From: Anaerolineae bacterium
GTDB taxonomy: Bacteria; Chloroflexota; Anaerolineae; Caldilineales; Caldilineaceae
NCBI GenBank assembly: GCA_030432295.1
Contig: JAUIHI010000011.1
Span: forward strand, 62,001 to 126,000
Direction of reading: 5' to 3'
Length of the DNA: 64,000 nt
Numbering within the stretch: the stretch's first letter is position 1; the number at the start of each line of letters is the position of its first letter. The notes below the pieces were generated by a model. That model did not search any database, had not been told where the DNA came from, and worked only from the letters and a program-made list of their open reading frames with translations. Shown here piece by piece: positions 7,253-56,890 of this stretch. A program made the translations under genes and the position numbers.

Positions 7253-7295
7253 TATCGGAATCTCCTGAACGGGGAGGTTGGGTGCGTTGCCGGTA

Positions 7296-7362
7296 AACGT
7301 AAAACGTGAAACGTGGCAAACGAAGTACCCGGAAGCACTTGCGTTTCACGTTTCACGTTTCA
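7296..7362. repeat. Inverted repeat of ACGTTTCAC words in leuS leader
   Basis: The left arm is made of AAACGT/AAACGTG words and the right arm of GCGTTTCACGTTTCACG. The arms complement each other imperfectly over about 21 nt, with a 23-nt loop. The same words build the hairpin at 19382-19442. In the leuS transcript it would form a stem about 45 nt before the start codon. It may be an attenuator or only a repeat. Confidence 0.55.
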
Positions 7363-8396: not shown

Positions 8397-8930
8397 ATGG
8401 AAACTGCTCTCGCCCAAGCCTATCTCGAAGACACAGCCAAACTTTTCCGCCGTCAGAAAACCCTGGCCGACCGGGCAATGGCCCAGATCGACGACGACGC
8501 TTTCTTTGCCCTGCTCGATCCCGAAGCCAACTCCGTGGCTGTGCTGGTCAAGCATATGGCGGGCAATATGGGCTCCCGCTGGCGGGACTTTCTGACCAGC
8601 GACGGCGAGAAGCCAGACCGCAACCGGGACAGCGAATTTGTCATCGAGCCGGGCCAGGACCGGGCCTGGCTGACCGCCTACTGGGAATCGGGCTGGGAGA
8701 TTCTGCTGGATGCCATCGACAATCTGACCCCGGAGGACCTGGGCCGCACAGTCCCCATCCGCAGCGAACCCCATCTGGTGCTAAAAGCCATCAACCGCCA
8801 GCTCGATCACTACAGCTACCACACCGGACAGATCGTTCTGATCTGCAAACATTACGCGCCGGTCTGGCAAAGCCTGAGCATTCCCAAAGGCGGCTCCGAC
8901 GCCTTCAACGAGCGGATGAACAGGTCGTAG
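8397..8930 (+). CDS. DUF1572 family DinB-like protein
   Basis: A 177-residue four-helix-bundle protein of the DinB/YfiT superfamily (DUF1572). The superfamily includes metal-dependent thiol transferases and stress proteins, but the role of this branch is unknown. Likely metal-binding histidines are in VLVKHMAGN and DHYSYHTGQI (the HxxxH-like pair near residues 140-144). The sequence also has SRWRDFLTSDGEKP and a tail with WQSLSIPKGGS, typical of the family. The ATG at 8397 has GGAG at a proper distance, while the frame upstream to 8325 lacks such support. It is cytosolic and probably monocistronic. Confidence 0.85.
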   Translation: METALAQAYLEDTAKLFRRQKTLADRAMAQIDDDAFFALLDPEANSVAVLVKHMAGNMGSRWRDFLTSDGEKPDRNRDSEFVIEPGQDRAWLTAYWESGWEILLDAIDNLTPEDLGRTVPIRSEPHLVLKAINRQLDHYSYHTGQIVLICKHYAPVWQSLSIPKGGSDAFNERMNRS

Positions 8931-8967
8931 CGCCCCAAACTCACGCGGAGATGCACGAGACATCCAA

Positions 8968-8991
8968 ACGAAATATCCAATACCCATTCGT
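8968..8991. repeat. ATTGGGTATT-family repeat, single copy
   Basis: ACGAAATATCCAATACCCAT, ending in TTCGT, is bounded by short ACGAA/TTCGT arms and lies 25 nt before the start of the reductase gene. The words match those of the long hairpins at 29333, 45484 and 54327. Confidence 0.65.
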
Positions 8992-9016
8992 ACCACACAG
9001 ATTCCGGAGCAACCTT

Positions 9017-10030
9017 TTGTCTACCATTTCCAGCCGTGAAATCCGGCTTGCCAGTCGCCCAACGGGCGAGCCAACCGCCGAAAACTTCGCCCTCGCCACT
9101 GTCGAACTGGACAGCACCCCACCCACAGACCACCTGCTGGTGCGCAATCTCTATATGTCCGTCGATCCGTATATGCGGGGGCGGATGCGGGAAGGACGCA
9201 GCTACACGCCTCCCTTTGCCCTGAACGAAGCAATGACCGGCGGCGCGGTGGGTGAAGTCGTCGCCTCCAGCCATCCCGATTTTGCCCCCGGCGATACGGT
9301 CCTGCACAGCTACGGCTGGCGGGAATACGCCAGCGTCCACGGCAAGGGAGCCGTCAAAGTCGACCCGTCCCTGGCCCCGGTCCAGAGCTTTCTGGGCGTG
9401 TTGGGGATGCCGGGCAAGACGGCCTATGTGGGGTTGCTGGACATCGGCCAGCCCAAAGCCGGAGAGACGGTCTTTGTCTCCGGTGCAGCGGGCGCGGTCG
9501 GTTCGTTGGTCTGTCAGATTGCCAAGCTGAAAGGCTGCCGGGTGGTGGGCAGCGCAGGCAGCCCGGCGAAGATCGCCTGGCTGAAAGAGACAGCAGGCGT
9601 GGACGGCGCTGTCAACTACCGGGAAGTCAAGAATCTGCGCAAGGCCATCGCTGCCGAATGTCCCGACGGGGTGGATGTCTATTTTGAGAATGTGGGCGGC
9701 GAGCATCTGGAAGCCACCCTCTCCCTGATGAACGACTTCGGGCGCATCGCCGTCTGCGGGATGATCTCCCAGTACAACGCCAGCCAGCCCGAGCCAGGCC
9801 CCCGCAATCTGGGCCTGGTGATTGGCCGCCGTCTAAAGATACAGGGCTTTATCGTTTCGGACCACGCGGACCGGGACGCGGATTTCTATCGGGATATGGC
9901 CGCCTGGATGAGCGAAGGCAAAATCCACTGGGAAGAGACAGTTGTGGAGGGGATCGAAAACGCACCCGACGCCTTCCTGGGACTGTTCAGCGGCGAGAAT
10001 CTGGGCAAAATGCTGGTGAAGTTGGCGTAG
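9017..10030 (+). CDS. NADP-dependent oxidoreductase, zinc-free MDR superfamily
   Basis: About 337 residues, similar to the CurA/leukotriene B4 12-hydroxydehydrogenase branch of the medium-chain reductases, which reduce alpha,beta-unsaturated carbonyls with NADPH. The sequence runs STISSREIRLASRPTGEPT, YMSVDPYMRGRM, the nucleotide-binding glycine motif SGAAGAVGSLVCQIAKLKG (about 145-163), then CGMISQYN and GRRLKIQGFIVSDH near the C-terminus. The zinc-ligand cysteines of alcohol dehydrogenases are absent. I choose the TTG at 9017: GGAG lies 7 nt upstream and the protein then begins at the conserved STISSR. A longer frame from 8951 would translate the repeat at 8968-8991. Confidence 0.9.
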   Translation: MSTISSREIRLASRPTGEPTAENFALATVELDSTPPTDHLLVRNLYMSVDPYMRGRMREGRSYTPPFALNEAMTGGAVGEVVASSHPDFAPGDTVLHSYGWREYASVHGKGAVKVDPSLAPVQSFLGVLGMPGKTAYVGLLDIGQPKAGETVFVSGAAGAVGSLVCQIAKLKGCRVVGSAGSPAKIAWLKETAGVDGAVNYREVKNLRKAIAAECPDGVDVYFENVGGEHLEATLSLMNDFGRIAVCGMISQYNASQPEPGPRNLGLVIGRRLKIQGFIVSDHADRDADFYRDMAAWMSEGKIHWEETVVEGIENAPDAFLGLFSGENLGKMLVKLA

Positions 10031-15467: not shown

Positions 15468-15700
15468 ATAGACGGCAGACCGCAGACAGCGGACCGCGAT
15501 CGCGACACGTCGGTTGCCCAATTTACTGCGGTCTGCTGATTATAGCCGTACCAGGGCCAGGGGTCAAAGCAGGCGCGGATCGTACAGCTTTCAGGGTGTG
15601 GTCATAGGGAGCAATGAAAACCGGAACGCAGATTGCGCAGAGGCCGCAGATTGCGCAGATTGAATCCGTGTTCCCTTTCATCCGTGTATACAATCCAGAT
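15468..15700. repeat. Mixed repeat words (CTGCGGT and GCAGATTGCGC types)
   Basis: 15468-15540 holds GACGGCAGACCGCAGACAGC plus CTGCGGTCTGCTG. 15612-15665 holds two copies of a GCAGATTGCGCAGA unit and CATCCGTGT words. There is no gene in this interval between the nitroreductase and the SLC13 gene. The elements resemble those in the other gaps of the window. Confidence 0.6.
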
Positions 15701-19381: not shown

Positions 19382-19442
19382 AAAAAGTGACCGGTGAAAC
19401 GTGAGAGTACCACCCTTTCTCACGTTTCACCGGTCACTTTTT
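19382..19442. terminator. Bidirectional terminator built from ACGTTTCAC words
   Basis: A perfect 25-bp stem begins AAAAAGTGACCGGTGAAACG and ends in a T-run on both strands. It has an 11-nt loop and lies between two convergent genes, one base after the stop of the nitrilase-like gene. Confidence 0.88.
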
Positions 19443-29332: not shown

Positions 29333-29386
29333 GTATTGGATATTTTGTTGAAATGTCGATGGGACACCCAACAAAATATCCAATAC
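29333..29386. repeat. ATTGGATATT-family inverted repeat
   Basis: A perfect 18-bp stem, GTATTGGATATTTTGTTG and its complement, with an 18-nt loop. It lies between convergent genes, 5 nt after the kinase stop, where it could also end transcription. Confidence 0.85.
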
Positions 29387-38949: not shown

Positions 38950-39016
38950 ACCACAAAGGCACGAAGACACAAAGAACAGCAATCGACTTTCTTTGCGCCT
39001 TTGTGACTTTGTGGTT
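38950..39016. repeat. CACAAAGG/CACGAAG inverted repeat
   Basis: ACCACAAAGGCACGAAGACA on the left and CTTTGTGACTTTGTGGTT on the right pair over about 26 nt with four mismatches. The same words occur at 3535-3560 and 10033-10058. Confidence 0.65.
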
Positions 39017-43253: not shown

Positions 43254-45482
43254 ATGTCACACATCACTTCCCCCCAAACCGAGACTGTGCGCATCGTCTT
43301 CCAGCCCGCCGGGCGACAGGGCGACATCCCTGCTGGCACGACGCTGCTGGAAGCGGCCCGCCGTCTGGGCGTGGAAATCGAATCCATCTGCGGCGGCCAC
43401 CAGACGTGCAGCAAGTGCAAAGTGCTGGTGGAAGAGGGCGACTTCGCCAAATTTGCCATCCGCTCCGCCGCCGAGCACCTGACGCCGCCCGGTGAACGGG
43501 AGATCGAATACGCCCGCAAACACAGCTTTGGCGAGGGCGAGCGGCTGAGTTGCGCCTGCCAGGTGACCGGCGATCTGGTCATCCGCGTGCCGGAGGAGAG
43601 CCAGACCCGCAAGCAGGTGGTGCGCAAGGCCGCGGGTGTGGAGCGGGCCATTTCTGTGGACGCGCCTATGCGCCTCTATTACGCCGAACTGCCCATCCCC
43701 GATATGAAAGATCACCGGGGGGACTGGCAGCGGCTGGCCGACGAACTGTCTGCGGTCCACGGGCTGGAGAATCTAGCCATCGACCCGGCCATCCTGCCCA
43801 GCCTGCAACCGGCCCTGGCCGCGGGCAAGCGCGCCGTCACCGTCACCGTTTTTGCCAGTGGGAAATCAGAAAGTCGGGAGGTGGTGAGCGTCCAGCCCGG
43901 CTTCCACGACGAAATTTACGGGATGGCCTTTGACGTGGGCACGACGACCGTCGCCGGTCATCTCTGCCACCTGCGCACGGGCGAAATCCTCGCCACCGCC
44001 AGCCGGATGAACCCCCAGCTCCCCTACGGCGAGGATTTGATGAGCCGGGTCAGCTATGCGATGGTCAACCCGGACGGGACCGAACGAATGCACGGCGCGA
44101 TTATCGACGGGCTGAACGAACTGATCGCCGAAGCCTGCGCGGACGCAGGGATTGTCCCGACGGATGTGGTGGAACTGGTCGTCGTCGGCAACACGACAAT
44201 GCACCACTTGATTTTGGGCGTGAACCCGCAAGAGTTGGGCGGCGCGCCCTTCAGCCTCGTCACCCACGACGCCCTGGACGTGAAGGCCCGGGATCTGGGC
44301 ATCGCCATCGCCCGGGGCGGCAATCTCCACATCCCACCCTGCGAAGCGGGCCACGTGGGCGCGGACAATGTGGGGGTGCTGGTGGCCGAGGCCCCCTACG
44401 CCCAGGACGAGCAGATGCTTGTGCTGGACATCGGCACAAACGGCGAGATTCTGCTGGGCAACCGGGAACGAATGTTCAGCGCCAGCAGCCCCACCGGTCC
44501 CGCCTTTGAAGGCGCGCAGATTCTCCACGGGATGCGGGCCGCGGCAGGCGCAATCGAACGCGTCCGCATCGACCCGGCCAGCCTGGACGTACGCTACCAG
44601 ATGATCGGGAAGGACGAATGGGTGGAGAGTAAAGAAGGTATTGGGTATTCGATATTGGGTAGTGACGTCCCGGAGACATACCAACCCAATACCCAATACC
44701 CAATATCCAACACCCCTGCCAGCCGCAAAGCCCGTAGAGATGCTATTCTCAACCCCACCCTCAAAGCCTCGGGCATCTGTGGCTCCGGGATTATCGAGGC
44801 GATTGCCGAACTGCTGACCGCCGGTGTGCTGGCTCCCAACGGGCGTTTTGTGGAAATTGCTCACCCCCGCCTGCGCACGGGGCTGGGAGACGGTGGGGGC
44901 AAAGCCGAGTTTGTGCTGGCCTTTCCCCACGAGACCAGCACTGGTCGGGCGATTACCGTCCATTCCGACGATATACGCGCCATTCAGTTGGGCAAGGCCG
45001 CGCTCTACGCCGGATCGAAGTTGCTGATGGCACGGCTGGGGCTGGAAACAGTGGACCGGATTGTCCTGGCTGGTGGTTTCGGCAGTTACATCGACCCCAA
45101 ACACGCGATGCTCATCGGGCTGATCCCCGACTGCGATCTGACGAAGGTGACAGCCGTGGGCAACGCGGCCGGCGACGGGGCGCGTATGGTTCTGCTCGAC
45201 AAGGCCAAACGGAGCGAGGCCCAGTGGGCCGCGCGCTGGGTGCGCTATGTGGAGACCGCGGTGGAACCGTCCTTCCAGGACGAATTTGTGGGGGCCATCA
45301 ACCTGCCCCACGCCAGCGACACTTTCCCCCATTTGCAGCCGTATGTGGACGAATGCAGAGCACAGTGGAGTGCAGACCGACAGGCGGCCATTGCCGCACT
45401 GGAAAATAGTGGCGGCGGCCAGCGCACGAGCCGCGCCGATCGGGCCGCCCGCCGTGCCGAGCGCCAACAGAGACGGGGATAA
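43254..45482 (+). CDS. ASKHA-domain corrinoid activation protein (RamA/RACo-like, DUF4445) with 2Fe-2S domain
   Basis: 742 residues. The N-terminal ferredoxin domain has CGGHQTCSKC (C-x5-C-x2-C near 46-55) and a fourth Cys in LSCACQV (about 101). A linker is followed by an ASKHA ATPase-like domain (about 220-690; AFDVGTTTVAGHL, VVGNTTMHHLILGV, LDIGTNGEI, LAGGFGSYIDP). RamA/RACo proteins reduce Co(II) corrinoids back to Co(I), using the Fe-S cluster and ATP. A stretch at about 461-487 (GIGYSILGSDVPETYQPN) is made of repeat words. The tail is Arg-rich (SRADRAARRAERQQRRG). It stands 5' of a homocysteine methyltransferase region, which fits reactivation of methionine-synthase cobalamin. Confidence 0.92.
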   Translation: MSHITSPQTETVRIVFQPAGRQGDIPAGTTLLEAARRLGVEIESICGGHQTCSKCKVLVEEGDFAKFAIRSAAEHLTPPGEREIEYARKHSFGEGERLSCACQVTGDLVIRVPEESQTRKQVVRKAAGVERAISVDAPMRLYYAELPIPDMKDHRGDWQRLADELSAVHGLENLAIDPAILPSLQPALAAGKRAVTVTVFASGKSESREVVSVQPGFHDEIYGMAFDVGTTTVAGHLCHLRTGEILATASRMNPQLPYGEDLMSRVSYAMVNPDGTERMHGAIIDGLNELIAEACADAGIVPTDVVELVVVGNTTMHHLILGVNPQELGGAPFSLVTHDALDVKARDLGIAIARGGNLHIPPCEAGHVGADNVGVLVAEAPYAQDEQMLVLDIGTNGEILLGNRERMFSASSPTGPAFEGAQILHGMRAAAGAIERVRIDPASLDVRYQMIGKDEWVESKEGIGYSILGSDVPETYQPNTQYPISNTPASRKARRDAILNPTLKASGICGSGIIEAIAELLTAGVLAPNGRFVEIAHPRLRTGLGDGGGKAEFVLAFPHETSTGRAITVHSDDIRAIQLGKAALYAGSKLLMARLGLETVDRIVLAGGFGSYIDPKHAMLIGLIPDCDLTKVTAVGNAAGDGARMVLLDKAKRSEAQWAARWVRYVETAVEPSFQDEFVGAINLPHASDTFPHLQPYVDECRAQWSADRQAAIAALENSGGGQRTSRADRAARRAERQQRRG
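44636..44714. repeat. ATTGGGTATT-family inverted repeat inside coding sequence
   Basis: GGTATTGGGTATT on the left and AATACCCAATACC on the right are exact complements, with further partly pairing words. The block is in frame with the ASKHA gene and adds about 27 residues between conserved parts. Confidence 0.8.
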
Positions 45483-45483
45483 C

Positions 45484-45556
45484 AGATATTGGGTATTGGA
45501 TATTTGGTTGGGATACCCCTGGGGCATCCCAACCAAATATCCAATACCCAATATCT
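45484..45556. repeat. Longest ATTGGGTATTGGATATT hairpin
   Basis: Two 36-nt arms with one mismatch around a single T. Each arm reads AGATATTGGGTATTGGATAT, TTGGTTGGGAT, then ACCCC or GCCCC. It starts 2 nt after the ASKHA stop and ends 24 nt before the peptidase start. Confidence 0.92.
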
Positions 45557-50456: not shown

Positions 50457-51371
50457 ATGCGACGCGTACTCTTCCTCTTCCTGGATGGCGTGGGCCTGGG
50501 CAGCGATGACCCGACTGTCAATCCGGTGGCAGCGGCCGAACTCCCAACTCTGCGCGGACTGATCGACGGCAAACCGCTCACGGCCTCTACCGGACGTTAC
50601 AGCAACGGACGCGGCCACCTGATCCCAACCGATGCCCGTTTGGGCGTGCCGGGTCAACCCCAGAGCGCAACGGGCCAGGCTGCCATTCTCACCGGTGTCA
50701 ACGCGCCGGCCCGGCTGGGTGAACACTACGGCCCCCGGCCCGACCAGCGGGTGCGGGACATCCTGGACGAAGCCAGCCTCTTTGCCCGGCTCAACCAAGC
50801 CGGGCTGCCCAGCTATTTTTGCAACGCCTATCCCCAGGGCTATTTTGATCGGATCAAACAGGGCAAGCGGGGGCTGAGCGCGGTGCCCTATGCGGCTACT
50901 GTGGGCGGGCAGGCCCTGCTCACTGCGGACGCGATGCGGGCGGGCACGGCTTTGAGCGCCAATTTCACGGGGGAAGGCTGGCGCACCCAATTGGGCTACA
51001 CCGACATTCCCGACTATACATTGGAAGAGGCCGGGGCCAGGTGGTGGGAGATCGCCCAGCCCTATCGTTTTGTCTTCTTCGAGCATTGGCTGACCGACAG
51101 GCTGGGCCACTATCGGGATATGGCCGGTGCGGTGAAAAACTTTCAACGCATCGACCGCTTTGTGGCGGGTCTGCTGGCCGCCGCAGATTGGGAGAACACA
51201 CTGCTGATTATCAGCAGCGATCACGGCAACATCGAGGATTGCACGGTTCGTCTCCACACGGAAAACCCGGCGCTGACACTGCTCTACGGCGCGCAGAGCA
51301 GCCGCATCGCCCCGCGTATTCGTGGCCTGGATGACTTCGCCAGTGTGATCGAAAATTTTCTGCAACTGTAG
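50457..51371 (+). CDS. Alkaline phosphatase superfamily metalloenzyme (phosphopentomutase/iPGM-like)
   Basis: 304 residues. The first strand RVLFLFLDGVGLGSDD gives the metal-binding Asp, PQSATGQAAILTG the Ser/Thr nucleophile region, and ISSDHGNIED the second metal site, as in cofactor-independent phosphoglycerate mutases and phosphopentomutases. It lacks the long inserts of those enzymes and is shorter, so the reaction is not assignable; a phosphatase or phosphotransferase is likely. The ATG lies just after TTTTGCC repeats and has no clear ribosome site. The stop TAG is inside the hairpin at 51367-51423. Confidence 0.82.
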   Translation: MRRVLFLFLDGVGLGSDDPTVNPVAAAELPTLRGLIDGKPLTASTGRYSNGRGHLIPTDARLGVPGQPQSATGQAAILTGVNAPARLGEHYGPRPDQRVRDILDEASLFARLNQAGLPSYFCNAYPQGYFDRIKQGKRGLSAVPYAATVGGQALLTADAMRAGTALSANFTGEGWRTQLGYTDIPDYTLEEAGARWWEIAQPYRFVFFEHWLTDRLGHYRDMAGAVKNFQRIDRFVAGLLAAADWENTLLIISSDHGNIEDCTVRLHTENPALTLLYGAQSSRIAPRIRGLDDFASVIENFLQL

Positions 51372-51423
51372 GGGCGCTGCTTGCTGCGCCCGTGTGTCGG
51401 ACGCAGCAAGCAGCGCCCCTACA
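51367..51423. terminator. Perfect 22-bp hairpin after metalloenzyme gene
   Basis: TGTAGGGGCGCTGCTTGCTG plus CG, and its exact complement, enclose 13 nt. The stop codon is part of the stem. There is no strong U-run, so it is either a terminator or a dispersed repeat. Confidence 0.7.
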
Positions 51424-51475
51424 GATTTATCTGGAGCTGAACCTATCCAATAGGACGGGTGCGCAGGGCCAAAGT

Positions 51476-53104: not shown

Positions 53105-53157
53105 TTTCACTCTCCTCCTGTGCTGTGCGAACCAACTGATTCCACGAAAGTCTTTGT

Positions 53158-53300
53158 CCGCAGATGACGCAGATTCCGCAGATTGAATCCGGCAAATCTT
53201 GAAAATCTGTGGATAAGCACTTCTTTGGTTTTACTCAATTCGCTGATGAAACCAAAAATGAGAGTCTGCGGTCAGCGGTCGGTCGTCCGCCGTCTTCTCT
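53158..53300. repeat. GCAGATTG and CTGCGGT word repeats
   Basis: 53158-53215 has TCCGCAGATGACGCAGATTC, then CGCAGATTGAATCCG and AAATCTTGAAAATCTGTGGAT. 53265-53300 has GAGAGTCTGCGGTCAGCGGT, then a GCCGTC...CTCTC return arm. No gene is seen in the 278-nt gap apart from the promoter at 53305. Confidence 0.6.
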
Positions 53301-53382: not shown

Positions 53383-54324
53383 ATGTTGAGCCACACCCTG
53401 CGCTATTTGGATAACGGTAGCATCGAATTGATCGAACAGGAAATCGGCGATCCCCAGCCAGGGGAGGTGCAACTGAGCGGCGGCGCGTGCGGCATCTGCT
53501 CTTGGGACATTGCCACGGCCCGCTATGGCAAGGATATGCACCCCAAGGCCCCGGCTGGTCACGAAGGCGTGGGCTATGTGGCAAAGGTGGGCACTGGTGT
53601 GACCGGTCTGCGCGAGGGTGACCGGGTGGCGGGCGGCGGCTTTGCCACTGTGCGCAATCTGGCCGCGGAGCGGGTCTACAAACTCCCCGATTCATCCCTG
53701 GCCGACGAATTCTGGATCGTCGAGCCGGTTTCCTGTGCGGTGACCGGGCTGGACCACTGCCGCTTGCAGCCCGGCCAGCGCATCGCCCTCATCGGCTGCG
53801 GATTTATGGGCCAGTTGATTTTGCAGGGGCTGCTCCACGCACCCCTGGCCGAGCTGGTGGTCATTGACATCGCCGACAACCGGCTGGCGCTGGCGGCCAA
53901 ACAGGGCGCGACAGAAACCATCAACAGCGCTCAGGTGGATCGGGCCGAGCTGGTCGCCAGCCTGAAGGCACGCAATTTCGATGTGGTGGTGGACACCACT
54001 GGCAGCCAGCCAGCCCTGGACCTGGCCACGGACATTGTGCGCCGGGGTGGGCTGATCAATCTCTTCGGCTGGATCAAAGGCAGCCAGGCCACATTCGACC
54101 CGACCAAATGGCATCTCGGCGGCTTTTCGGTAGTCAACTCTGCGCCCAGTTCCCGGCTGCGCGATCCCTTCCCCCCCGCCATCGATCTGATCCACCGGGG
54201 CATCTTCGATCTGCGCCCACTCGTCACCCACACCGTTCCCCTGGCCGACTACCCGGACCTGATGGCGGAGATTCTGAGTGGGGACGGCGGGTATGTGAAG
54301 GGCGTTGTGACGCTGAGGGGATAG
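53383..54324 (+). CDS. Zinc-type MDR alcohol/polyol dehydrogenase
   Basis: About 313 residues from the ATG at 53383 (AGGAAGAG upstream); a longer frame to 53209 would run through promoter and repeats. CGICSWDIATARYG and APAGHEGVGYVAKVGTGV contain the catalytic Cys and the GHE motif of zinc MDR enzymes. The structural-zinc cysteine lobe is short or absent. IALIGCGFMGQLILQGLL is the NAD site. Similar to sorbitol/threonine-dehydrogenase-like proteins. Substrate unknown; no sugar genes are adjacent. Confidence 0.85.
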   Translation: MLSHTLRYLDNGSIELIEQEIGDPQPGEVQLSGGACGICSWDIATARYGKDMHPKAPAGHEGVGYVAKVGTGVTGLREGDRVAGGGFATVRNLAAERVYKLPDSSLADEFWIVEPVSCAVTGLDHCRLQPGQRIALIGCGFMGQLILQGLLHAPLAELVVIDIADNRLALAAKQGATETINSAQVDRAELVASLKARNFDVVVDTTGSQPALDLATDIVRRGGLINLFGWIKGSQATFDPTKWHLGGFSVVNSAPSSRLRDPFPPAIDLIHRGIFDLRPLVTHTVPLADYPDLMAEILSGDGGYVKGVVTLRG

Positions 54325-54326
54325 GA

Positions 54327-54450
54327 GGTATTGGATATTGGGTATTTCGTGGGGGCGTTGGCGGCCCGTTTCCATCTTTGCCCACCGGCCCTACCCAATC
54401 TCTTTATTCAGCGATTCCTTTACCCAACGAAATATCTGATACCCAATACC
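54327..54450. repeat. ATTGGATATT-family repeat with distant arms
   Basis: GGTATTGGATATTGGGTATT plus TCGT (54327-54350) and ACGAAATATCTGATACCCAA plus TACC (54427-54450) pair imperfectly across 76 nt. A further TGATACCCAA copy follows and touches the next start codon. Confidence 0.75.
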
Positions 54451-54461
54451 TGATACCCAAA

Positions 54462-55174: not shown

Positions 55175-56797
55175 ATGCCCGCAGCCATTTGCGCCCCCCA
55201 GCCCGACGCGGTTGACGCCGGGGCCACAATTTTACGCAAGGGCGGCAACGCCATCGACGCCGCGGTGGCCTGTGCCCTGGCCCAGGCAATCGTCGATCCC
55301 CAGGACTGCGGACTGGGCGGCTATGCCTTGGCCAATCTGCACCTGGCCGGGATGAGCGGCTCTGTCGGGCTGGATGCGCCCGCGCTGGCCGGGGCCAAAG
55401 TCACCGGCGATATGTGGGTGGATCAGGTCATCCGCCCCAACCCGGACGGCTGGGGCTTCTTCCTGAAGGGCCACGTCAACGAAAGCGGCTACACATCCGT
55501 CTGTACCCCCGGCACTGTCGCAATGCTGGCCGCGCTGCTGGAACGCTGGGGAACCCTCTCCTGGGCGGAGGTGGCCGCGCCCGCGCTGCGACTGGCCGAG
55601 GAGGGCTGGATGGTGGGTGGGATGATTGCGGGCTGGTGGCAGCGCTCCCGCCGCTATCCAGAGACCGTCTCCTTTTTGGACCAGATCACCCGCCACGCCG
55701 AGGCCAGCCGCATCTATCTGGACGCAGAAGGCAACGCCCACGAAGCGGGCGATGTCATCCGCAATCCCGACTACGCCCGCAGCCTGCAACGGATTATCGA
55801 CAACGGCCCGGAGGATTTCTATCACGGCGATCTGATGGAGCAGATGACTTCCGACCTGGCGGCCAACGGCAGCTTCGTCACTCGCCAGGATTTCGAGAGC
55901 TATGCGTTGCGGGAGCAGATGTCGGTCAGCGGAACCTATCGGGGCCACGTCGTCACCAGCGCTGCGCCTCCCCACGGCGGGCCGACACTTATTGCCATTC
56001 TTAACATTCTGGAAGGTTACGATTTGGCAGCCCTGGGCCACAATTCGCCCGAATACATTTACACCGTTTCGATGGCGATGAAAGCTGCCTTTGCCGACCG
56101 CAACCCGCATATGGCCGATCCCAACTTTGAGGACGTGCCCACCGAATGGATGATGACGAAAGAGCGGGCCGCCTTCTGGCGAGATCACATCGCCGCTGGC
56201 AAACCGATCCACGCCGAATTCACACCGACCGGCTCGCCCCACACTACCCACGTCAGCGTCGTGGACGGCGCAGGCAACGTCGTCAATCTCACCCACTCCT
56301 TGGGGATGTCTTCGGGCGTCATCACACCGGGGCTGGGCTTTATGTACAACAATTCGATGGTGAACTTTCACCCCTGGCCCGGCCACCCCAACTCGATTGT
56401 GCCAGGCAAAGGACGCACAACCGGAATGGCTCCGACAATTGTCTATACAAAGGGAGACAGCGACGCGCATCAACCCCTGCTGGCCCTGGGCGCGCCGGGT
56501 GCAACTCGCATCATCACCGGCTGCGTGCAGGTGATCCTGAATGCGCTGGACTTTGGGATGAGCGCGGCAGAGGCGGTCTACGCGCCCCGCTTCGACTGCC
56601 AGGTGGGGGCCATTCGCCACGAGCGACGCATCCCCGGCTCGGTGATGGCGGAAGTGGCCAAACGCCACCCGGTGCTGGAATTGCCCTACAGTTACGGCGG
56701 CGTGGGGCTGGTCCACGCCATCTACCGGGACCCGACCACCGGCGCGCTCAGCGGCGGCGCGGACGGCGGCGGCGAGGGGATGGCGGTCGTTGTTTGA
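55175..56797 (+). CDS. Gamma-glutamyltransferase family protein
   Basis: 540 residues of the Ntn-hydrolase family that cleaves gamma-glutamyl bonds (glutathione) after autoprocessing. The large subunit begins AICAPQPDAVDAGATILRKG, then NAIDAAVACALAQAIVDPQDCGLGG in the usual form. The processing site is SPHTTHVSVVDGAGN with the new N-terminal Thr (about residue 354). GVITPGLGFMYNNSM and GAPGATRIITG follow. There is no signal peptide, so it may be cytosolic, as in some bacterial GGT-like amidases. GGAGG precedes the ATG. It lies before an arginase gene. Confidence 0.92.
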   Translation: MPAAICAPQPDAVDAGATILRKGGNAIDAAVACALAQAIVDPQDCGLGGYALANLHLAGMSGSVGLDAPALAGAKVTGDMWVDQVIRPNPDGWGFFLKGHVNESGYTSVCTPGTVAMLAALLERWGTLSWAEVAAPALRLAEEGWMVGGMIAGWWQRSRRYPETVSFLDQITRHAEASRIYLDAEGNAHEAGDVIRNPDYARSLQRIIDNGPEDFYHGDLMEQMTSDLAANGSFVTRQDFESYALREQMSVSGTYRGHVVTSAAPPHGGPTLIAILNILEGYDLAALGHNSPEYIYTVSMAMKAAFADRNPHMADPNFEDVPTEWMMTKERAAFWRDHIAAGKPIHAEFTPTGSPHTTHVSVVDGAGNVVNLTHSLGMSSGVITPGLGFMYNNSMVNFHPWPGHPNSIVPGKGRTTGMAPTIVYTKGDSDAHQPLLALGAPGATRIITGCVQVILNALDFGMSAAEAVYAPRFDCQVGAIRHERRIPGSVMAEVAKRHPVLELPYSYGGVGLVHAIYRDPTTGALSGGADGGGEGMAVVV

Positions 56798-56890
56798 GAT
56801 ATTCGGTATTGGATATTGGGCGTGCGGAGACGTAATTGCGTACTGCGTATTCCGTCGTGCGGGCCGAGCATTCACAATTCCGTTCACTAT
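56798..56890. repeat. ATTGGATATT and GCGTATT words
   Basis: GATATTCGGTATTGGATATT plus GGGCG, followed by CGTAATTGCGTACTGCGTAT. A single arm without a clear return arm, placed between the gamma-glutamyltransferase and arginase genes. Confidence 0.6.

What the first reader, a model, noticed from the sequence alone, without database searches (positions are those of the whole stretch)
45484..45556. Dispersed inverted-repeat family built from ATTGGGTATTGGATATT words
At least six places in 64 kb carry the same words (8968, 29333, 44636, 45484, 54327, 56798). The best copy has 36-nt arms with one mismatch and a one-base loop. Others have perfect 18-bp stems or only one arm. Loop sequences differ, while the stem words recur in altered order. 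That does not fit simple copying of one fixed element, as in a MITE or REP. It looks more like local word amplification followed by inversion. I do not know a described family with this form in Chloroflexota; the nearest analogue I know is the STRR repeats of filamentous cyanobacteria.
Basis: partly seen in the sequence, partly recalled or inferred. Interest (0 to 1): 0.72.

Follow-up and report, generated by a model that had tools for sequence, protein, structure and literature searches.

The report
Species-specific seven-base-word hairpins
A bacterium of the Chloroflexota carries many copies of a short DNA hairpin built from repeated seven-letter words, mostly just after gene ends but sometimes inside genes, and the same spots inside genes of sister species often carry repeats of different seven-letter words, which suggests that such spots are rewritten rather than filled by one fixed mobile element.

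Summary
The word ATTGGRTATTGGRTATT (up to 1 mismatch) matches 378 times in the 6.7 Mb genome, 0 times reversed. It builds hairpins whose arms are 7-nt words (ATTGGGT/ATTGGAT). In 46 of 80 measured two-armed copies the innermost words lie 41 or 42 nt apart, in a roughly 73-nt hairpin; all 80 loops differ. The 81 two-armed sites sampled lie between tandem genes (57), convergent genes (10), inside genes (12), unassigned (2), none divergent, typically a few bases after a stop codon. Word matches range from 7 to 378 among seven congeners; a related word, GGGGAYT, ranks them differently. At in-gene sites, 23 of 24 sister-species comparisons show 7-nt periodicity, 16 of them with other words. Stem mismatches show no G-U excess in the transcript sense (58 GU, 58 AC). 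Tyrosine-transposase genes with flanking hairpins exist in this genome, but those hairpins have other sequences. Best reading: heptad-repeat hairpins of the kind known from Xanthomonas and cyanobacteria, kept alike by DNA-level arm copying and repeat slippage. That mechanism is inferred; a REPIN-like unit is the main rival. New variant of a known kind.

The parts
45484..45556 (.). best copy: 36-nt arms, 1-nt loop; one base lies between it and the stop codon of the gene ending at 45482
   Evidence: site empty in G001, G002, G003, other sequence in G004 and G006
44636..44707 (.). two-armed copy in frame inside the gene 43254-45482 (RACo-like protein)
   Evidence: orthologous position holds other heptad words in the five congeners compared
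43254..45482 (+). host gene: Fer2, RACo linker, middle and C-terminal domains
   Evidence: own gene call; Pfam
29333..29386 (.). two-armed copy, perfect 18-bp stem, 4 nt after a gene end, between convergent genes
54326..54349 (+). left arm of a long-loop copy, just after the gene ending at 54324
54423..54451 (-). right arm of the same copy
8964..8992 (-). single arm between genes ending at 8930 and starting at 9017
56797..56820 (+). single arm at the stop codon of the gene ending at 56797; four of five relatives compared hold GTGAAAC-like or GCGATTA-like words here
7295..7360 (.). hairpin of another 7-nt word family (GTGAAAC)
19382..19442 (.). hairpin with GTGAAAC-like words, 1 nt after a gene end

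Best explanation
This is one family out of several dispersed hairpin families whose arms are arrays of degenerate 7-nt words. SHOWN: period 7, hairpin form, position directly after stop codons and in some spots inside genes, uneven abundance between sister species, other words at the same in-gene sites in relatives, arms that match each other better than arms of other sites, and no sign of RNA-level pairing selection in the one test made. INFERRED: the words spread and stay alike by DNA processes. Replication slippage adds or removes 7-nt units; polymerase template switching between the two arms of a hairpin copies one arm onto the other; and recombination or template switching between dispersed copies spreads the word that dominates in that genome. 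Selection then keeps the hairpins where they do least harm: after stop codons, not between divergent genes, and, in frame, in tolerant protein segments. The roughly 73-nt form with a shared inner arm was also copied as a unit at some stage, by an unknown route.
For: Genome-wide matches 378 vs 0 in the reversed control; 7 to 378 in seven congeners. GGGGAYT words rank the same genomes differently (G000 126, G001 742, G002 62, G003 12, G004 852, G005 164, G006 806). 37 of 49 periodic-armed hairpins (106 hairpins scanned) have period 7; shuffles give 0.2. In-gene sites: 23 of 24 ortholog comparisons have lag-7 repeats, 16 without ATTGGRT words; random 130-mers 26 of 600 (pieces not matched in length). 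Hairpins at in-gene sites 9 of 24 vs 4 of 173 control comparisons. Mosaic copy in G004 at the C54:133008 site: ATTGGGT/ATTGGAT words run into GGGATTG words on one arm, the other arm being mostly CCCCAAT words. Arms within a site are more alike than permuted arms, 0 of 2000 permutations. GU 58 vs AC 58 among 177 non-Watson-Crick cells of 1636, from 64 copies. 80 of 80 loops distinct, none of 533 equal-length pairs at 90% or more. Template switching is described as homogenising arms of inverted repeats (PMC8604942, abstract and passages).
Against: No slippage or conversion event was observed directly. The fixed spacing and shared inner arm of 46 of 80 copies look like unit copying, and arm similarity within a site would also follow from subfamilies copied as units. 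At intergenic sites, hairpins in relatives are not significantly commoner where G000 has one (12 of 31 vs 13 of 57, p = 0.14), so replacement in place is only supported inside genes, and that rests on 5 sites and related species. Of the 16 in-gene comparisons with other words only 6 still form a hairpin by my threshold. In other genera the same RACo linker holds other words (G020, G015), so repeated independent origin in a tolerant linker can mimic rewriting of one old copy. The GU/AC test had no adequate positive control (only 3 terminator-like hairpins).
Confidence: 0.5

Rival explanations
1. A REPIN-like or MITE-like element: two inverted conserved words with a variable spacer, moved as a unit in trans by a transposase such as a RAYT; variable words are decay.
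For: Fixed spacing in 46 of 80 copies with a shared inner arm, also seen in G002, G004, G006; single-armed copies (29 of 110) like REP singlets; empty sites; uneven abundance. Y1 transposase genes with flanking hairpins exist in this genome.
Against: No two measured copies share a loop, although the same genome has a roughly 100-nt family whose listed G000 copies are mostly 90-98% identical over nearly the whole length. The Y1 transposase loci that have flanking hairpins carry other hairpins. Of 7 Y1_Tnp matches (6 over the family cut-off) only one lies near a degenerate arm (L188), about what chance gives by a rough estimate of mine. It does not explain other 7-nt words at the same in-gene sites.
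Confidence: 0.27
2. RNA hairpins selected as terminators or 3' mRNA stabilisers; words are a convenient building material.
For: 82 of 99 stop-codon sides (single-armed sites included) lie within -20 to +15 nt of the first or last word, median 5 nt; no two-armed copy between divergent genes (0 of 67 vs 6 of 46 window spacers, p = 0.004); strong predicted folding.
Against: GU and AC mismatches are equal in the sense of transcription (58 and 58). A run of 4 or more T within 25 nt downstream of the right-hand word occurs in 6 of 53 tandem copies, against 14 of 53 on the other side read outward, so no terminator-like U-run. 12 of 81 two-armed copies lie inside genes. Xanthomonas heptamer repeats show a similar gene-end bias, so it may be tolerance.
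Confidence: 0.13
3. Ordinary independent microsatellite growth in tolerant sequence, with no spread between sites; shared words within a genome are historical accident.
For: The same tolerant segments hold unrelated words in other genera (G020 and G015 in one gene, G020 and G014 in another); intergenic co-occurrence is not significant.
Against: 378 matches to one word, and a shared inner arm at unlinked sites, are hard to explain by independent origin. Genomes differ in which word dominates.
Confidence: 0.08

Closest known systems
Heptameric (GGGAATC)n repeats of Xanthomonas (Rehm et al. 2015, PMC4692102; section 10 and passages read)
   Same: 7-nt degenerate units, 183-186 sites per genome, 70-75 inverted close pairs, mostly intergenic, closer to the upstream gene end, mostly tandem neighbours, few divergent, 7-11% intragenic; prominent repeats not at the same genes in two species.
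   Different: Different word; here a fixed-size ~73-nt form with a shared inner arm, several word families in one genome, and other words at the same in-gene site in sister species. The parts I read do not report these.
Cyanobacterial heptanucleotide repeats (name STRR recalled; GGGGA(C/T)T in Nostoc, passages in PMC4692102)
   Same: 7-nt words; the GGGGAYT word is itself abundant in this genus.
   Different: In Nostoc only a few paired inverted repeats are reported; here 81 of 110 sampled sites are two-armed.
REPINs / GTAG REPs (PMC3116915 passages; PMC3733652 passages)
   Same: Two inverted conserved words, variable spacer, singlets, gene-end position, stop codon sometimes supplied, some copies inside genes.
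   Different: No associated RAYT shown; arms are 7-nt arrays; loops unique in the sample; other words at the same in-gene site in relatives.
Rickettsia palindromic elements (recalled; the term occurs in the MITE review PMC10969869, search listing only)
   Same: Palindromic repeat in frame inside unrelated protein genes (recalled).
   Different: Recalled as longer and without 7-nt arrays; not compared here.
TAACTGA heptamer repeats of Beggiatoaceae (PMC4679880, abstract)
   Same: Dispersed intergenic 7-nt repeats.
   Different: Direct repeats, mostly upstream of start codons; only one indirect repeat in the main genome.

Membership tests
Heptanucleotide repeats (Xanthomonas / cyanobacterial type) | unit of 7 nt in degenerate tandem arrays | tested here: met
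   37 of 49 periodic arms have period 7; tandem run of about 10 ATTGGGT units at G000:C25:127-199
Heptanucleotide repeats (Xanthomonas / cyanobacterial type) | dispersed, mainly intergenic, many copies | tested here: met
   (15 of 110 sites inside genes, 5 unassigned)
Heptanucleotide repeats (Xanthomonas / cyanobacterial type) | paired inverted arrays (Xanthomonas form) | tested here: met
   81 of 110 sampled sites two-armed
REPIN | inverted pair of conserved words with spacer | tested here: met
REPIN | cognate RAYT gene flanked by the same word | tested here: not met
   7 Y1_Tnp matches (6 over cut-off); no locus has intact words within about 1.5 kb; L188 has one degenerate arm; L187, L189, L191, L192 have other hairpins. 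Whether these genes are RAYTs was not tested (one search failed)
MITE | copies alike over the full length, spacer included | tested here: not met
   80 distinct loops, none of 533 equal-length pairs at 90% or more
MITE | target-site duplication | not tested
   flanks of the congeners are roughly 70-90% identical, too diverged to judge
MITE | filled and empty sites in relatives | tested here: met
   5 of 26 intergenic comparisons scored empty
RNA hairpin under pairing selection | G-U mismatches tolerated over A-C in the transcript | tested here: not met
   58 vs 58, p = 1.0; no adequate positive control
Intrinsic terminator | U-run after the stem | tested here: not met
   T-run of 4 or more within 25 nt downstream in 6 of 53 tandem copies, 14 of 53 on the opposite side

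The most novel reading that the evidence does not exclude
Each genome of this genus has its own changing vocabulary of 7-nt words that is written, as matched hairpin arms, into tolerant sites and overwritten in place by newer words, including in frame inside enzyme genes. It would be a self-templating repeat system that evolves in concert across hundreds of sites without a transposase.
Probability: 0.3. Interest if true: 0.82.

Novelty: new variant of a known kind. Interest (0 to 1): 0.6.

Why it matters
Why some bacterial genomes carry so many 7-nt repeat units is, as far as I know, open. Here the same sites can be read in up to seven congeners, so the alternatives (unit transposition, RNA function, self-templated rewriting) make different predictions that strain-level sequencing could test. 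The copies inside genes for a RACo-like protein, a molybdopterin enzyme, a xanthine-dehydrogenase-like protein, an aminotransferase and others show how such DNA can feed new peptide segments into unrelated proteins.

Tried and rejected
Tried or rejected: a viral carrier (the perfect-arm pattern has 0 matches in viral contigs). A transposon with these words as ends: 7 close pairs of single-arm sites were listed and only two were looked at. At C9:61196-62515 a gene call on the - strand lies between a GGGATTG-type and an ATTGGAT-type arm (gene not identified); C54:11167-11419 is a short stretch. So this idea is only partly tested. Autocorrelation of all window spacers pooled was uninformative (lag 7 0.269, similar to other lags; strong lag-7 runs in only 3 of 46 spacers, and 33 positions in coding sequence); I then measured the arms of hairpins only. 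A first classification with 3 mismatches was too loose and counted GGGATTG words as ATTGGRT; it was repeated with 1 mismatch. A tRNA control for the GU/AC test was dropped (6 tRNA lines), and a terminator-like control gave only 3 hairpins (1 GU, 0 AC). An NCBIfam scan of the Y1 transposase loci failed on frame and was not repeated. I looked for a shared stretch between G020 loci and MAG ACE_CHL9 loci, to see if they are one genome, and found none in the pieces held, which decides nothing.

Limits of the counts: the 110 sites were not drawn at random. They come from the first listed places and the listed matches, in 82 stretches (318,615 bases, overlaps counted twice). One search counts overlapping registers of one array separately, and one search scored only 150 of 2018 candidates. 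Gene calls are my own codon-model calls. 80 of 81 two-armed sites could be measured. One search took 74 of the 80 (4 with spacing over 60 nt and 2 unassigned dropped), of which 64 tandem or in-gene copies enter the GU/AC count. One search took 46 and 76. One search chose the best inverted repeat in each sequence, so its within-site score is high by construction. The relatives' loci were fetched by likeness to element-rich G000 stretches, so they are not a random sample. Congener assemblies are 74 to 98% complete.

Full report
What is there. The best copy, 45484-45556, has 36-nt arms with one mismatch and a 1-nt loop; one base separates it from the stop codon of the preceding gene. In the whole 6.7 Mb genome the word ATTGGRTATTGGRTATT matches 378 times with up to one mismatch, and 0 times when read backwards. 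A covariance model built from 20 copies finds 150 matches, both strands counted, which is the number of candidates scored out of 2018.

Architecture. Of 110 sampled sites, 81 have both arms, 15 only the + arm and 14 only the - arm. In 46 of 80 measured two-armed copies the innermost words start 41 or 42 nt apart. Their arms read, in 7-nt steps, ATTGGGT-ATTGGAT-ATTTCGT-AGTGACG with variants, then a short loop and the reverse complement. All 80 loops are different; among 533 equal-length pairs none reaches 90% identity, 10 reach 80%, mean 54%. In contrast, a family of about 100 nt at C9:118585-118686 has G000 copies listed mostly at 90-98% identity over nearly its whole length. The same 41/42-nt form with the same inner arm occurs in G002, G004 and G006, where I pooled congener loci with named MAG contigs that I take to be the same genomes from equal contig lengths. 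MAG ACE_CHL9 of the family Caldilineaceae (its genus not established by a call) uses the same words, with innermost spacing 25 or 26 in 6 of 9 copies.

Where it sits. With simple gene calls of my own, the 81 two-armed copies lie between tandem genes (57), convergent genes (10) and inside genes (12), with 2 unassigned and none between divergent genes; of the 29 single-armed sites 4 are divergent. Window spacers of 40 nt or more are 35 tandem, 6 divergent, 5 convergent (p = 0.004 for 0 of 67 against 6 of 46). Of 99 stop-codon sides, single-armed sites included, 82 lie within -20 to +15 nt of the first or last word, median 5 nt; 81 start-codon sides have median 30 nt. The 12 two-armed in-gene copies lie in 10 genes; nine of these had Pfam matches: a RACo-like protein (window 43254-45482), PMT_2, an ILEI-domain protein, an RNase_H_2 protein, a molybdopterin oxidoreductase, a class I/II aminotransferase, a penicillin-binding protein, a xanthine-dehydrogenase-like protein and a radical SAM protein. 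The encoded peptide commonly resembles GIGYWILG...ISNTQYPIS.

Sister species. Word matches in the seven congeners are 378, 16, 201, 7, 226, 14 and 175 for G000 to G006. Of 34 other genomes searched, only G020 (516), G010 (4) and G016 (1) have any. A related word, GGGGAYTGGGGAYTGGG, has 126, 742, 62, 12, 852, 164 and 806 matches, so congeners differ in their dominant word. Assemblies of the relatives are 74 to 98% complete, so counts are rough. The 45484 site is empty in G001, G002 and G003, and holds other sequence without 7-nt repeats in G004 and G006. In contrast, the 44636 site inside the RACo-like gene holds 7-nt repeats in all five relatives compared (G005 gave no match there), made of GGGATTG/GGGACTG, GAGATTG or GCGACCA/GCGAACG words, with the frame kept. 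Over 13 sites, in-gene comparisons show 7-nt periodicity in 23 of 24 (7 with ATTGGRT words, 16 with others, of which 6 with a hairpin); intergenic ones in 16 of 26 (3 ATTGGRT, 13 others), with 5 empty and 5 without 7-nt repeats; random 130-nt pieces show it in 26 of 600, not matched in length. At in-gene sites relatives have a hairpin in 9 of 24 comparisons against 4 of 173 at control positions (p = 7e-7), but at intergenic sites the excess is not significant (12 of 31 vs 13 of 57, p = 0.14). The comparisons are not independent, since species are related.

Rewriting or new insertion. Some copies are mosaics. At C54:133008, G004 starts with the ATTGGGT/ATTGGAT words seen in G000, G006 and G002 and goes over to GGGATTG words, while its other arm is mostly CCCCAAT words. 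This favours change in place. Against a single old copy, other genera show coding sequence without such repeats in the RACo linker (for example G016, G018, G010, G012), or other words there (G020, G015), and G003 has coding sequence of the same length without repeats at the L169:7072 site. Tolerant protein segments may therefore gain words repeatedly.

DNA or RNA. Stem cells of 64 tandem and in-gene copies were read in the sense of transcription: 1459 Watson-Crick, 58 GU, 58 AC, 61 other. RNA selection should favour GU over AC; no adequate positive control was available. A T-run of 4 or more follows within 25 nt in 6 of 53 tandem copies, against 14 of 53 on the other side. The two arms of a site are more alike than arms paired at random between sites, for the word part (0.946 vs 0.910) and the inner part (0.696 vs 0.584), 0 of 2000 permutations each (46 fixed-size copies). 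This fits arm copying, but also subfamilies copied as units.

Mobility. Seven Y1 transposase matches were found, six over the family's cut-off. L187, L189, L191 and L192 have hairpins flanking the transposase gene, of other sequence; L188 has one degenerate arm of the present type. By a rough estimate of mine about one such arm is expected by chance. I call these genes RAYT-like from memory of the family; no call classed them. A REPIN-like unit moved in trans is therefore not excluded.

Comparison with print. Rehm et al. 2015 (PMC4692102, section 10 and passages) describe heptamer repeats in Xanthomonas that share most features: inverted pairs, nearness to the upstream gene end, few divergent neighbours, some intragenic copies, and different genes in two species. 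Arm homogenisation by template switching is described in PMC8604942 (abstract and passages). REPINs: PMC3116915 (passages); GTAG REPs: PMC3733652 (passages). Two searches naming Chloroflexi, Litorilinea or Caldilinea with repeat terms listed 15 of 334 and 12 of 528 papers, none of which, by title and opening lines, is about such repeats in this phylum; the library is open-licence only, so this is weak evidence of absence.

Verdict. The kind is known (heptanucleotide-repeat hairpins). The variant, several word families with other words at the same in-gene sites of sister species and a fixed-size form, looks new to me, with the mechanism open.

Noticed in passing
window 51366-51424: 59-nt hairpin (CTGTAGGGGCGCTGC...) with many copies at up to 94% identity in the own genome and copies in congeners; may be a REP family.
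   Followed up: no
L187:588-2121, L189:1213-1960, L191:1304-2184, L192:1103-1863: Y1 transposase genes with hairpins on both sides, sequence different at each locus: candidate REPtrons.
   Followed up: partly
L170:8586-8686 (G000:C9:118585-118686): About 100-nt dispersed repeat with G000 copies listed mostly at 90-98% identity, a likely unit-copied element.
   Followed up: no
window 53153-53233 and 15636-15668: Repeats of about 9-nt words (CGCAGATTG type); the first has further copies in G000 and G005.
   Followed up: no
L168:11212-11394: Roughly 180-nt repeat, whole or in part, with many copies in the own genome and congeners.
   Followed up: no
L188:2010-2045: Degenerate single arm near a Y1 transposase-like gene.
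   Followed up: partly
G000:C25:127-199: Tandem run of about 10 ATTGGGT units close to a contig end; several G002 contigs also start with these words, so assemblies seem to break in them.
   Followed up: no
window 38950-39015: Hairpin of 8-nt words (CACAAAGG type), so not all word hairpins here have period 7.
   Followed up: no
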